The position numbers and the translations under genes are program-made. A stretch of DNA of 64,000 nucleotides from an uncultured Actinomycetes bacterium (GTDB lineage Bacteria > Actinomycetota > CADDZG01 > WHSQ01): positions 1 through 64,000 of the forward strand of contig CALMBW010000007.1 in the NCBI GenBank assembly GCA_937863385.1. Reading direction: 5' to 3'. This document shows, piece by piece, positions 58,792 through 62,788 of this stretch. Below the pieces are notes generated by a model, which saw nothing but the letters and a program-made list of their open reading frames with translations, did not search any database and was not told the origin of the DNA. The first letter of the stretch is position 1, and every line of letters begins with the position of its first letter.

Positions 58792-58895
58792 TCCCACTCA
58801 TTCGGCATCTAAGGGTCGGTTCTTTCGCAAGCCGCCTCGTATGTTCGTCGACCGCGGGACGAAAGGATGGGTCGGGCGGGTACAGTCACCGCATC

Positions 58896-60003
58896 ATGGA
58901 TGACCTCACCGAACGGCTCGATTCGATACAGAGCAAGCTCGCTCAGATCAAGGAGTACCTTTGACGTCGAGCGAAAGAGCGCTCGTCTAGCGGATCTGCG
59001 CGCTGAGAGCGCGGCCCCCGACTTCTGGTCCGACCAAGCAACAGCTCAAGCGACCATGGCCGAGGCATCGCGCCTAGAGGGTGATGTTGGCGCGTACGAG
59101 AGCATCGCAGCTCGTTCTGCGGACGCCGCCGTGATGTGGGAGCTGGCCCAGTCGGAATCCGACGAGGGCGCTGCTTCAGAGGCCGCGGCAGAGGTCGATG
59201 CTCTCGAAGCTGAGATCGAGCGTCTCGAGGTTCTTTCTCTGCTGGGCGGTGAGTACGACGATCATCCAGCCATCCTCGAGATCCACGCCGGTGAAGGCGG
59301 CACAGACTCGCAGGATTGGGCCGAGATGCTGCTTCGCATGTACACACGTTGGGCCGAACAGAACGGCTTCAAGACGCAACTGATCGAAGCCACCGACGGT
59401 GACGAGGCAGGCCTGAAGGGGGCGACGCTGACGGTTGAAGGCAGACATGCCTACGGGTTGCTCTCCGCTGAAAGGGGAGTGCACCGCTTGGTGCGGATCT
59501 CGCCTTTCGATTCGGCGAAGCGCCGTCATACGTCATTCGCTTCTGTGGATGTGACCCCCGAGGTGCAAGACGACGTGGAGGTCGAGATCGACCCCGACGA
59601 TCTACGTGTGGACACCTACCGTTCGTCCGGTGCAGGAGGACAGCATGTGAACGTGACCGACTCGGCGGTTCGTATCACACATCTGCCGACGGGGATCGTG
59701 GTGTCCTGCCAGAACGAACGGTCGCAGATGCAGAACCGTGCGGTGGCCATGCGCATCTTGAAGTCCCGGTTGCTCCAGAGGGCGATGGAAGAGAGAGCCA
59801 AGGAGCTGGCTGCACTATCGGGGGAGAAGATGGGGATCGGGTTCGGTTCGCAGATCCGCTCGTACGTGCTGCATCCCTATCAGATGGTGAAAGATCACCG
59901 GACGTCTCTTGAGGTTGGGAACGTGCAAGGTGTGCTCGACGGTGACGTCCAGCGCTTCATCGAAGCGGAACTGCGACGGCGGGCACAGGAAGAACACGGA
60001 TAG
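58896..60003 (+). CDS. prfB: Peptide chain release factor 2, with programmed +1 frameshift
   Basis: RF2 ends translation at UGA and UAA. The first 22 codons (ATG 58896, MDDLTERLDSIQ...) end at an in-frame TGA (58962-58964); a +1 shift at CTT-TGA-C enters the main frame (DVERKSARLADLRAE), which runs to 60003. The main frame has the GGQ catalytic loop as SSGAGGQHVNVTDSAVRI and the peptide-anticodon-type region HAYGLLSAERGVHRLVRISPF. Length (about 369 residues) is normal. The frameshift makes the level of RF2 self-regulating. It must be annotated as a joined coding sequence. Confidence 0.95.
58950..58965 (+). promoter_or_regulatory. RF2 programmed frameshift signal
   Basis: AAGGAG-TAC-CTT-TGA-C: an internal Shine-Dalgarno, three bases, then the shifty CUU-UGA-C. 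The spacing is identical to that of the Escherichia coli prfB site. Confidence 0.95.
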
Positions 60004-60116: not shown

Positions 60117-61190
60117 ATGGATGCCTCGGTCGAGAAGGTCGTGAAGCGCGTCGATGACGCAACGCTGGAGGAGCTACGTAACGTAGACATCGAAGACGTC
60201 TACGTTCAGATGGACGAGATGCTCAAAGCGCGCCCCACACCACTGGATCTTTACTTCAGGTGGGAGCGTCAGAACTGGGCCACCCAGGATCTTGACTTCA
60301 CCGAAGACCGGCAACACTGGACTTCGATGGAGGGCCCCTTCGGCGGTATCCGCGAGGAACTGCAACGAACCTTCACTCTGTTCTTCTTAGGGGAGCAAGC
60401 CGTTACAGACACTCTTTCGCCCTTGGTGCATGCAGCCCCCGACGAACCGTCCCGCAACTTCCTGTCGACCCAGTTGGTCGACGAGGCACGCCATTCGGTT
60501 TTCTTCTCGCGCTTCTTCGAAGAGGTAGTTGGGATCGAGGGGGGCATCACCGCTGCGCTCGAGCGGTTGCGTGACAGAACCGTAGACGGATACAGGGTGT
60601 TGTTCGACAACGATCTGGTCGAGGCCACCGAGGCGGTGCGAGAGGCACCTCACGACTACAAGGCATGGGTGCGCGGAATCGCTACCTATCACCTTGTGAT
60701 CGAAGGGATGCTTGCACTAACGGGCCAGCGTTACCTGTTGGGCATCGTCCGAGAGATGGGCATCTTGCCGGGCTTCTATGCGGGGTTCACTGCGGTTGCG
60801 CGCGACGAGTCACGTCACGTCAATTTCGGTGTTCGTGCACTGATGGAAGCGGGCGTTCGTGACCGTGAGCACCTCGATGTCGTCTCCGATCAGATCTTCA
60901 AGCTCTTGCCGACGGCTTGCAGGATCGTGGCTGCCCCGGACCGACGCTTCGTGATCTCCCCTCAGGAGACGCCCGAGAACCTGCGGATCAACCCCTTCGA
61001 TGTCAGGGACTTCTCCATGAATTCCCTGCTCAAGCGCCTGAAGGTCATCGGATTGACCGAGACGACGCTGAATGACATGCGAACCAAGGCGATGGGCTAC
61101 TACGACGAGGCGTGGGCCGACTACGAGCGCATCCACAACGAAGAGCACCCGTACCGGTATTTCGAGCGGATGGCGGCCGCAGGGGCCTGA
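60117..61190 (+). CDS. R2-like ferritin-fold dimetal oxidase (ribonucleotide reductase beta-like)
   Basis: A 357-residue protein with the full six-ligand carboxylate/His set of the ribonucleotide reductase R2 superfamily: E93, E123 and H126 (DEARH), E196 (VIEGML), E231 and H234 (DESRH). The residue four after H126, where R2 has its radical Tyr, is F130, as in class Ic R2 proteins; R2-like ligand-binding oxidases also lack that Tyr. There is no large subunit gene nearby, and the C-terminus lacks a typical R2 tail. It may therefore be a Mn/Fe or Fe/Fe oxidase rather than a reductase subunit. A -35-like TTGATA at 60083 and TGATTG at 60106 lie upstream. Confidence 0.75.
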   Translation: MDASVEKVVKRVDDATLEELRNVDIEDVYVQMDEMLKARPTPLDLYFRWERQNWATQDLDFTEDRQHWTSMEGPFGGIREELQRTFTLFFLGEQAVTDTLSPLVHAAPDEPSRNFLSTQLVDEARHSVFFSRFFEEVVGIEGGITAALERLRDRTVDGYRVLFDNDLVEATEAVREAPHDYKAWVRGIATYHLVIEGMLALTGQRYLLGIVREMGILPGFYAGFTAVARDESRHVNFGVRALMEAGVRDREHLDVVSDQIFKLLPTACRIVAAPDRRFVISPQETPENLRINPFDVRDFSMNSLLKRLKVIGLTETTLNDMRTKAMGYYDEAWADYERIHNEEHPYRYFERMAAAGA

Positions 61191-61213: not shown

Positions 61214-61900
61214 ATGATCAAGCTCATAGATGTGGTCAAGGAGTACAAGGGCGGAGTCGCCGCGCTCAAAGGCATCTCGATCGATGTCGAAAAGGGCGAG
61301 TTCGTCTTCGTGGTAGGCCCCTCCGGGTCGGGAAAGTCCACCTTTCTGAAGTTGCTGACCAAGGAAGAGGACCCCAGCTCCGGTGAGGTCTACGTAGCCG
61401 GCAAGAACCTGGCCAGCTTGCCGAAGTGGCGTGTCCCTTACCTTCGGCGAAACGTCGGCTGTGTGTTCCAAGATTTCAAGCTGCTACCTAACAAGACCGT
61501 GTTCGAGAATGTCGCCTTCGCCCTCGAGGTGATCGGCCGTCCTCGCTCGGTGATCCAACGGCAGGTTCCGCAGATCCTGGACCTCGTCGGCTTGGGCGAG
61601 AAGCTCGACCGGTTCCCCGACGAGCTGTCGGGTGGCGAGCAGCAGCGGGTGTCGGTCGCCCGGGCGTTCGTCAACAGGCCTTTGATCCTGGTGGCAGACG
61701 AACCGACCGGGAACCTTGACCCGGCTACTTCGGTAGGAATCATGCGGCTTCTCGATCGCATCAATCGAACCGGCACGACGATCGTCATGGCAACCCACGA
61801 CCACGCGATCGTGGACTCCATGCGACGCCGGGTGATCGAACTCGAGAACGGCCTCATCGTTCGTGACCAGTCCCGTGGCATCTACGGAGTGGGCGGGTAG
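61214..61900 (+). CDS. ftsE: Cell division ATP-binding protein FtsE
   Basis: A 228-residue ABC ATPase: Walker [28 protein letters not shown] (typical of FtsE), signature LSGGEQQR, Walker [12 protein letters not shown] and H-loop THD. With FtsX it forms a membrane complex that activates peptidoglycan hydrolases at the division site. The order ftsE-ftsX-M23 peptidase is seen here. A TAGCCT box lies 9 nt before the ATG. Confidence 0.96.
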
Positions 61901-61903
61901 CAG

Positions 61904-62788
61904 ATGCTTCGTATCAACTACTTCCTAAGCGAGACCATCACCAACCTCCGGCGAAACTTCTTGATGACGATCGCGGCCATCTCGACCGTCGCGATCTCGC
62001 TGCTCCTTCTCGGTGGGGTTCAGATCCTCGGCTTGATCGTCCGCAACGTCACCTACACCTGGGAAGCCAAGGTCGAAGTGTCCGTGTTCCTGTTGGATAC
62101 CGCCACCCAGAATGAGATCAACGACATCCAGTCAACCCTCATCGGTTACGACGAGGTGGCCGAGGTCACCTTCGTTTCGAAGGCCGAAGCCTACGAAGAG
62201 TTCAAGCGCATCTATCGCAACCAACCGGAGTTATACGAAACCCTCCCCGAAGATTCACTACCCGCTTCGTTCCGCGTGAAGCTCCACAACGCGGACGACG
62301 CCGAAGAGATCGATGCTCGCATCGAGGGGGCGCCCGGTGTGGAGGAGGCTCGAACCGGTGGTGAGGTGATCAAGAGACTGCTCCAGGTCAACTCGCTTCT
62401 TCGCACGATCACGTTCGCTATGTCTTTGATCCTGCTGATCGCTGCGGCGGCCTTGATCGCGAACGCGATCCGAGTCGCCATCTATGCCAGGCGCGATGAG
62501 ATCGGGATCATGAAGCTGGTGGGTGCGACCAACTGGTTCATCCGGATCCCATTCATGCTCGAAGGGGTATTCGCCGCCCTCAGTGGGGCTCTTGTCGCCG
62601 GACTCATCGTTTTCCTGGGTAACGCCCTGCTTTTCTCGCGCGTGGGCGACGCCATCCAGTTTTTGGGTCCCGTCCTGTCGTTCTCCACCGGTGAGCTGGT
62701 GGGGGTCTTGGTTCTCCTGGTGGGCGTGGGTATCGCAGTGGGCCTTATCGGCTCCACCCTGGCCCTGCGCCGCTTCCTCGAGGTCTAA
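61904..62788 (+). CDS. ftsX: Cell division permease FtsX
   Basis: A 294-residue membrane protein with a helix at about 20-45, a large extracytoplasmic loop (about 50-165), and three more helices (about 170-290). LRRNFLMTIAAISTVAISL at the start and IGIMKLVGATNWFIRIPFML near 195-215 are typical of FtsX. It transmits the ATPase state of FtsE to extracellular hydrolases. The gene starts 3 bp after the ftsE stop. Confidence 0.96.
   Translation: MLRINYFLSETITNLRRNFLMTIAAISTVAISLLLLGGVQILGLIVRNVTYTWEAKVEVSVFLLDTATQNEINDIQSTLIGYDEVAEVTFVSKAEAYEEFKRIYRNQPELYETLPEDSLPASFRVKLHNADDAEEIDARIEGAPGVEEARTGGEVIKRLLQVNSLLRTITFAMSLILLIAAAALIANAIRVAIYARRDEIGIMKLVGATNWFIRIPFMLEGVFAALSGALVAGLIVFLGNALLFSRVGDAIQFLGPVLSFSTGELVGVLVLLVGVGIAVGLIGSTLALRRFLEV

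What the first reader, a model, noticed from the sequence alone, without database searches (positions are those of the whole stretch)
60117..61190. Orphan R2-like oxidase with Phe at the radical-Tyr position
All six metal ligands are present but the residue at H+4 is Phe (F130), and there is no catalytic subunit gene nearby. It may be a Mn/Fe protein or an oxidase of unknown substrate rather than a ribonucleotide reductase part. Its neighbour prfB and the division genes give no hint.
Basis: partly seen in the sequence, partly recalled or inferred. Interest (0 to 1): 0.5.

Follow-up and report, generated by a model that had tools for sequence, protein, structure and literature searches.

The report
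Unannotated sister family of R2lox oxidases
The gene resembles the small subunit of ribonucleotide reductase but is almost certainly a free-standing, oxygen-activating metal enzyme related to the R2lox oxidases, from a large unstudied branch in which many relatives carry a lipid-binding domain, so it probably oxidises a lipid-like molecule rather than helping to make DNA precursors.

Summary
Window 60117-61190 (+) encodes a 357-aa R2-fold protein with six dimetal ligands (E93, E123, H126, E196, E231, H234) and Phe130 at H126+4. The Phe is no oddity: 3 of 3 solved R2lox chains compared have it. The genome has three R2-like genes but one large-subunit gene, a class II (B12) NrdJ that needs no R2. 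It is not a ribonucleotide reductase part.

[quoted passage not shown] It keeps the R2lox cross-link pair (V96/Y191) and tunnel Ala (A200), but the conserved cavity Tyr is Gln (Q204), and it scores below every R2lox cut-off of NCBIfam. It belongs to a broad, unnamed Gln-type family in Actinomycetota and Chloroflexota/Dormibacterota, in which SCP2 lipid-carrier domains were fused at least twice, in opposite orders; other members sit in acyl-CoA operons. The window's orthologs lie at the prfB-ftsE site in 9 of 16 family genomes.

Best reading: an O2-activating Mn/Fe or Fe/Fe oxidase of a lipid-like substrate. Cofactor and substrate are inferred.

The parts
60117..61190 (+). R2lox-like (Gln-type) dimetal oxidase gene, 357 aa
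   Evidence: ORF; PF00268 over cut-off; orthologs 59-70% identical; AlphaFold2 model pLDDT 94.8
60393..60395 (+). E93, N-terminal metal ligand (GkR2lox E69)
   Evidence: alignment to 4hr0/3ee4/7qbp; codon position
60402..60404 (+). V96, position of the R2lox cross-link valine (GkR2lox V72)
   Evidence: V in 94 of 98 family rows
60483..60494 (+). E123...H126, metal ligands (E-x-x-H of helix C)
60504..60506 (+). F130 at H126+4 (radical-Tyr position of class Ia R2; Phe also in R2lox)
60687..60689 (+). Y191, position of the R2lox cross-link tyrosine (GkR2lox Y162)
   Evidence: Y in 94 of 98 family rows
60702..60704 (+). E196, metal ligand (GkR2lox E167)
60714..60716 (+). A200 (GkR2lox A171; Phe in all groups of RNR R2 according to PMC6399176)
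   Evidence: A in 97 of 98 family rows
60726..60728 (+). Q204 in place of the conserved R2lox cavity Tyr (GkR2lox Y175)
   Evidence: Q in 86 of 98 family rows, L in 10
60807..60818 (+). E231...H234, metal ligands (E-x-x-H of the last bundle helix)
58867..60003 (+). prfB, upstream neighbour, gap 113 bases
61214..61900 (+). ftsE, downstream neighbour, gap 23 bases
   Evidence: named by eye, no family scan; conserved neighbour
61904..62788 (+). ftsX, next downstream
   Evidence: named by eye, no family scan; conserved neighbour

Best explanation
A stand-alone O2-activating dimetal-carboxylate oxidase of the R2lox kind. Shown: R2 fold by confident prediction, six ligands, cross-link pair V96/Y191, tunnel Ala200, no RNR partner, Gln in place of the cavity Tyr. 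Inferred: two metals (Mn/Fe as in solved R2lox, or Fe/Fe) bind in the four-helix bundle and reduce O2; the high-valent state draws an electron from Y191 and forms the Tyr-Val ether link at first activation; the matured site then makes a two-electron oxidation (hydroxylation or desaturation) of a hydrophobic, probably acyl-type, substrate that enters by the channel which Ala200 leaves open. Q204, with H192 and Q119 nearby in sequence, changes the polar surroundings of metal site 1, where R2lox Tyr175 hydrogen-bonds to the metal-bound water (PMC6060897), so substrate or proton handling probably differs from canonical R2lox. Electron donor unknown.
For: Closest solved proteins are R2lox by sequence (7qbp E 5e-24; profile 1e-39 against 4e-15 for the best class I R2) and by structure (first 34 Foldseek rows; Z 28.1-31.2 for 27 R2lox entries against 24.4 and below for the rest). 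Class I R2 split off at 100/99. V96, Y191, A200 met. V96 and Y191 are lost together in 3 of the 4 rows that lost V, out of 105 (Fisher p 8e-5, but the rows are related: two or three separate lineages), as expected if the two act as a pair. The only R1 is class II in 10 of 11 genomes with the ortholog or its near kin; none was found in G008, 68% complete. Lipid link in the wider family: SCP2 domain in 21 of 32 scanned long ORFs, C-terminal in 19 and N-terminal in 2; acyl-CoA ligase next to R2 in Ktedonobacteria, thiolase-fadB-R2 in 4 of 15 loci; acyl-CoA dehydrogenases on both sides of this genome's own R2-SCP2 gene; a canonical R2lox operon with a separate SCP2 gene and fatty acid-CoA ligase on a Rhodococcus plasmid.
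Against: No lipid gene stands beside the window's own subgroup: prfB and ftsE here; mnmA and a PLP enzyme in 7 and 6-7 of 13 Chloroflexota/kin loci; and the Dormibacterota-type subgroup lies beside smpB-fmt-def-priA in 18 of 19 loci. The window protein has no SCP2 domain. Cofactor, cross-link, activity and ligand were not tested. The placing of the window family as sister to R2lox is only 84/95, and R2lox itself is unresolved (51/81).
Confidence: 0.6

Rival explanations
1. A plain member of canonical R2lox, with whatever function that has (one report: alkane monooxygenase in Geobacillus kaustophilus).
For: Ligands, V/Y pair, Ala and fold shared; NCBIfam's best hits are five R2lox models; PMC10867098 (sections 3 and part of 14 read) reports alkane loss with crude GkR2loxI lysate.
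Against: Cavity Tyr is Gln; F119-equivalent and N192-equivalent are Gln and His; 119 bits against a cut-off of 194; the same genome keeps a true R2lox that passes its cut-off (443 against 286). In that paper the ligand double mutant lost activity only slightly and lysates were crude.
Confidence: 0.15
2. A natural-product type N-oxygenase or deformylating oxygenase, like VlmB (azoxy synthase), AurF or ADO.
For: VlmB aligns over 293 residues at Z 24.4 and its Kitasatospora homolog at E 1e-6; two Streptomyces plasmid relatives lie in gene clusters with NRPS or amino-acid tailoring genes; weak AurF hits under cut-off.
Against: R2lox is nearer by every measure. The Streptomyces relatives are divergent: one lost both V96 and Y191. 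Housekeeping neighbours here, no biosynthetic cluster.
Confidence: 0.1
3. A small subunit of a class I ribonucleotide reductase of the Tyr-less class Ic kind (Mn/Fe, Phe at the radical position).
For: Phe at H+4 as in Chlamydia R2 (2ani is listed as its F127Y mutant); PF00268 hit.
Against: No class I R1 in the genome or in the ten others checked; Ala where all RNR R2 groups have Phe (PMC6399176 passage); V/Y pair present; tree 100/99 apart.
Confidence: 0.02
4. A non-catalytic or regulatory dimetal/O2 sensor tied to FtsEX or to translation.
For: Conserved prfB-R2-ftsE order with 23 bases to ftsE; two relatives in the family (L015, L016) have lost metal ligands and yet remain open frames.
Against: All six ligands are kept in the window protein and orthologs; the site is empty in 6 of 16 genomes with FtsEX intact, and near kin outside the family do not lie there.
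Confidence: 0.08

Closest known systems
R2-like ligand-binding oxidase (R2lox): M. tuberculosis 3ee4/4ac8, G. kaustophilus 4hr0, Saccharopolyspora erythraea 7qbp, Sulfolobus acidocaldarius 7qbk/6qrz
   Same: Fold, six ligands, V/Y cross-link positions, tunnel Ala, Phe at H+4, no RNR partner
   Different: Gln204 for the cavity Tyr, His192 for Asn, Gln119 for Phe; 25-28% identity over 260 residues; under the NCBIfam cut-offs; C-terminal helices beyond residue 316 not aligned to R2lox; some relatives SCP2-fused
Class Ic RNR R2 (Chlamydia trachomatis NrdB, 1syy)
   Same: R2 fold, six ligands, Phe at the radical-Tyr position
   Different: Z 24.3, phmmer E 4e-5, no R1, Ala instead of Phe at the tunnel position
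VlmB azoxy synthase (8wvr) and Kitasatospora homolog (6d9f)
   Same: R2-like dimetal fold, Z about 24 over 285-293 residues
   Different: 20% identity; natural-product context; farther by sequence than R2lox

Membership tests
R2lox | six carboxylate/His ligands of the dimetal site | tested here: met
   E93, E123, H126, E196, E231, H234
R2lox | cross-link valine and tyrosine (GkR2lox V72, Y162), reported as conserved in the group | tested here: met
   V96, Y191; conservation statement in passages of PMC6060897 and PMC6399176
R2lox | Ala at the tunnel position (A171), Phe in RNR R2 | tested here: met
   A200; PMC6399176 passage
R2lox | conserved Tyr lining the ligand cavity (Y175) | tested here: not met
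   Q204; conservation statement in PMC4118035 passage
R2lox | curated NCBIfam R2lox model cut-off | tested here: not met
   best 119.2 bits against 194 (NF006200); four other R2lox models also under
R2lox | tree placement apart from class I R2 | tested here: met
   100/99 split; position relative to canonical R2lox 84/95, not starred
R2lox | Mn/Fe cofactor, ether cross-link formed, fatty acid bound | not testable with these tools
   needs protein
class I RNR R2 | a class I R1 partner in the genome | tested here: not met
   one R1, class II NrdJ
class I RNR R2 | Phe at the position of R2lox A171 | tested here: not met
   A200
class I RNR R2 | Tyr (Ia/Ib) or Phe (Ic) at H+4 | tested here: inconclusive
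   F130 fits class Ic but equally R2lox
VlmB / AurF / ADO oxygenases | closest sequence or structural kinship | tested here: not met
   R2lox is closer by sequence and structure; AurF 17.7 bits against 29.6

The most novel reading that the evidence does not exclude
A large family of R2lox-like oxidases, now annotated as ribonucleotide reductase subunits, whose cavity Tyr is replaced by Gln and which works on carrier-delivered lipids: the SCP2 domain, fused at either end in different lineages, hands a lipid to the dimetal site. The window member is the version that lost or never had the carrier and became fixed in the prfB-ftsEX operon of one actinobacterial family, perhaps oxidising an envelope lipid.
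Probability: 0.3. Interest if true: 0.6.

Novelty: new variant of a known kind. Interest (0 to 1): 0.42.

Why it matters
The substrate of R2lox is a long-standing gap (PMC6399176 states that the physiological function is not identified; the 2024 alkane report, PMC10867098, rests on crude lysates). A sister family with the same cross-link pair, a different cavity residue, and repeated fusion to a lipid-carrier domain gives a direct handle: the SCP2 domain can be used to fish the substrate. It also flags a mis-annotation: Streptomyces relatives are labelled 'ribonucleotide-diphosphate reductase subunit beta' in public records although class I RNR is not what they belong to.

Tried and rejected
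Class Ic RNR reading: rejected (no class I R1; Ala200; tree). Phe130 as an anomaly: rejected, it is usual in R2lox. A supposed internal deletion in the G011 ortholog: rejected, the ORF runs through a stretch of N; left unfilled. Functional meaning of prfB/ftsE synteny: not established. The order is absent outside the family, as tblastn of the window's prfB, ftsE and ftsX found no such arrangement in the kin loci examined, except one Chloroflexi contig (L114) where a different subgroup member lies 1 kb before ftsE-ftsX-M23. Promoter/terminator scan around the gene: 1 promoter-like site against 0.9 expected and 5 terminator-like against 1.9; nothing usable. Phages: no relative by tblastn. Literature: R2lox with SCP2 or sterol carrier: no paper for SCP2 + ribonucleotide reductase + R2-like, one unrelated ubiquinone paper for sterol carrier protein + diiron + fusion + ribonucleotide reductase (listing only), none for ribonucleotide reductase-like + gene cluster + diiron + Streptomyces. 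That is only this open-licence library; Diamanti et al. 2022 on comparative R2lox structures was not found in it and was not read. Families not listed in the structural second look are not excluded by that.

Rows dropped before counts: of 110 unique R2 ORFs 5 with under 200 model positions were left out; 105 were cut to 71 at 85% identity plus 4 references for the tree. The seven 'Tyr-type' rows were picked because they carry Tyr at that column (they and the 3 PDB rows also form one group in the tree, 94/62), so that column's contrast is partly circular. The SCP2 count first covered 22 chosen ORFs of 33 with at least 400 aa; 10 of the other 11 were then scanned and had none, one (L088) was not. 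Many rows are near kin (for example Thermogemmatispora, Nocardia), so counts are not independent events.

Full report
What is there. Window 60117-61190 (+) is an open frame of 357 aa. Pfam gives PF00268 (ribonucleotide reductase small chain) at 45.4 bits, cut-off 33.6, and only sub-threshold AurF. Read from the DNA, the dimetal ligands are E93, E123, H126, E196, E231 and H234, and H126+4 is F130. It sits 113 bases after prfB and 23 bases before ftsE, all on the + strand.

Not a ribonucleotide reductase part. The window's own assembly (2.77 Mb, 27 contigs, 99.78% complete) has three PF00268 genes and one large-subunit gene. That one is a class II, B12-dependent NrdJ: NCBIfam NF005122 at 1417 bits against 859, and Pfam PF08471. 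Class II enzymes need no R2 (established knowledge). In 11 genomes that carry the ortholog or its nearest kin, 10 have an R1 gene at one place each and all 10 carry the class II N-terminal domain; the eleventh (G008, 68% complete) showed none. The two other R2-like genes of this genome are a true R2lox on contig 18 (443 bits against a cut-off of 286; a thioredoxin gene lies just upstream) and, on contig 16, an R2 domain with a C-terminal SCP2 domain between two acyl-CoA dehydrogenase genes. The window protein is 39% identical to the latter over 231 residues and 30% to the former over 279.

Kinship to R2lox. phmmer against the PDB ranks R2lox first (7qbp 5e-24, 3ee4 2e-21, 4hr0 1e-16), the best class I R2 at 4e-11, a VlmB homolog at 1e-6 and Chlamydia class Ic R2 at 4e-5. 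A profile of 14 family members gives 1e-39 for R2lox against 4e-15 for the best class I R2. The AlphaFold2 model from a 33-row alignment has mean pLDDT 94.8 and pTM 0.93. Foldseek's first 34 rows are R2lox, E 3e-10 to 3e-6; class I R2 begin at rank 35, 3e-5. By VIA-align 2, 27 R2lox entries have Z 28.1-31.2; VlmB follows at 24.4 and class I R2 at 24.3 and below. In a 34-row tree four class I R2 separate from the other 30 at 100/99; the window family (20 rows) is one group at 84/95 and canonical R2lox is unresolved at 51/81. So sister to, or nested in, R2lox.

Which R2lox marks it keeps. The cross-link valine and tyrosine of GkR2lox (V72, Y162) are V96 and Y191; the tunnel alanine (A171) is A200. 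PMC6399176 (passages seen) says A171 is conserved in R2lox and that all groups of RNR R2 have Phe there; PMC6060897 (passages) says the valine is completely conserved in R2lox. Phe at H+4 is the R2lox norm (3 of 3 PDB rows). The mark it lacks is Y175, which PMC4118035 (passages) calls a conserved tyrosine lining the ligand cavity and which hydrogen-bonds to the water on Mn1 (PMC6060897): here it is Q204. Over 98 unique family rows, Q is found in 86, L in 10, E and A in one each; A200 in 97, V96 in 94, Y191 in 94, F130 in 95. Two neighbouring columns differ too: Q119 (98 of 98; canonical R2lox mostly F) and H192 (97 of 98; canonical mostly N). The Tyr-type comparison rows were picked by their Tyr, so the contrast at that one column is partly circular. 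V96 and Y191 are lost together in three rows, V alone in one, Y alone in one, both kept in 100 of 105 (Fisher p 8e-5). The losing rows fall into two pairs of sister rows and one single, so this is two or three events rather than five.

The family. A profile search of 396 genomes of the phylum found 37 with a match at E 1e-30 or better. That mixes in canonical R2lox (this genome's own one scores 3e-40); 26 of 396 have a best match at 1e-59 or better. A scan of 84,980 named species genomes returned 78 loci, the capped best of 112, from Actinomycetota, Chloroflexota (Thermogemmatispora, Ktedonosporobacter), Dormibacterota and Nocardia. The tree of 75 rows places the window with its family orthologs (100/99), then with two genomes of another actinobacterial family (94/82) and Chloroflexota/Dormibacterota-labelled proteins (16 rows, 99/95). 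All of these NCBIfam-tested members score under the R2lox cut-offs (window 119 and contig-16 protein 130, against 194), and Streptomyces plasmid relatives are labelled ribonucleotide-diphosphate reductase subunit beta.

SCP2 fusions. Of 33 unique R2 ORFs of at least 400 aa, 32 were scanned: 21 carry PF02036 SCP2 and 11 do not (one, L088, was not scanned). In 19 the extra length is C-terminal; 17 of these were seen individually with the domain there, two follow from the count. In two (L128, L129, Thermoleophilaceae/Solirubrobacterales) the SCP2 domain is N-terminal. The 19 form one branch (97/92) and the two lie in another (100/99). Fusion in opposite orders on two branches points to a functional tie between the oxidase and a lipid carrier. 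A canonical R2lox operon on a Rhodococcus opacus plasmid independently holds a separate SCP2 gene, a fatty acid-CoA ligase, alcohol and aldehyde dehydrogenases, a ferredoxin and a reductase.

Neighbours. In Ktedonobacteria an acyl-CoA ligase cluster appears in 10 of 15 loci; in the seven of the eight printed members other than L103's fragment it ends at the start of the R2 gene, on the same strand. Thiolase and a fadB-type protein precede R2 in 4 of 15. In Nocardia an AMP-binding gene follows in 7 of 7 (Pfam on one). Against this, nearer kin of the window have mnmA and a PLP enzyme (7 and 6-7 of 13 loci), and another subgroup has smpB-fmt-def-priA convergent to it in 18 of 19 loci. So the lipid link rests on the wider family, not on the window's own subgroup.

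The prfB-ftsE site. In the window's family (16 genomes held), the ortholog lies between prfB and ftsE in 7 with both flanks seen (G000, G001, G010-G014), in G015 on two contigs that each hold one flank, and in G008 after prfB at a contig end: 9 of 16. In 6 of 16 (G003-G007, G009) prfB and ftsE are direct neighbours; for G002 no prfB was found. Kin outside the family lie elsewhere. This shows a gene gained or lost as a clean unit; it does not show a role in division or translation.

How it most likely works. Shown: fold, ligands, cross-link positions, open tunnel residue, changed cavity residue, no RNR partner. Inferred: O2 activation by Mn/Fe or Fe/Fe, ether cross-link at first activation, then two-electron oxidation of a hydrophobic acyl-type substrate with an unknown electron donor. 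The reported alkane activity of GkR2loxI (PMC10867098; introduction and most of the results read) is compatible but weak, since lysates were crude and the ligand double mutant lost little activity.

Verdict. The novelty is the family: a Gln-type branch beside R2lox, broad, unnamed in NCBIfam, with lipid-carrier fusions. By the tested features it is not filed as R2lox proper (two features not met), but it very probably works like one.

Noticed in passing
L004 (G000:C18:233048-235846, minus): The class II NrdJ of this genome carries an intein with a LAGLIDADG domain (Pfam). R1 frames in G010 and G012-G015 are also long (1322-1540 aa), while G001 and G011 are 954 and 923 aa, so intein presence seems to vary within the family.
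   Followed up: no
L015:1447-2724 and L016:1114-2382 (G002, G005): Two sister R2-SCP2 proteins have lost metal-site residues (E93 to V/I, H126 to N/S, Y191 to C) but stay open; possibly pseudo-enzymes that keep the lipid-carrier part.
   Followed up: partly
L052:14977-15966 and L053:11950-12915: Streptomyces plasmid relatives inside apparent natural-product clusters, one beside NRPS, tryptophan halogenase and tryptophan 2,3-dioxygenase genes; the first has lost both cross-link residues (V to G, Y to F).
   Followed up: partly
L001:796-1281: A thioredoxin gene directly upstream of this genome's canonical R2lox gene, a possible electron donor.
   Followed up: partly
L163:2780-8789: Rhodococcus opacus plasmid operon: alcohol dehydrogenase, R2lox, FAD oxidoreductase, ferredoxin, aldehyde dehydrogenase, SCP2 protein, fatty acid-CoA ligase; looks like a complete oxidation pathway with its electron chain.
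   Followed up: no
L114:6001-10674: In one Chloroflexi contig a member of a different subgroup lies about 1 kb before ftsE-ftsX-M23; a second occurrence near ftsEX, perhaps chance.
   Followed up: partly
L128:4969-6885 and L129:2916-4904: N-terminal SCP2 domains (two stretches in L129) ahead of the R2 domain, the reverse of the usual order.
   Followed up: partly
window residues 320-350 (61074-61166): The window subgroup and its Chloroflexota kin share a C-terminal motif around Y-E-x-x-H-x-x-x-H-P in 17 of 17 rows printed, beyond the part that aligns to R2lox.
   Followed up: no
L033:4154-5026, L035:6337-7251 (G008, G009): A further subgroup follows branched-chain-amino-acid-type ABC transporter genes; in one of them (L019 = L035) the first ligand aligns as Asp and V96 as Met.
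   Followed up: no
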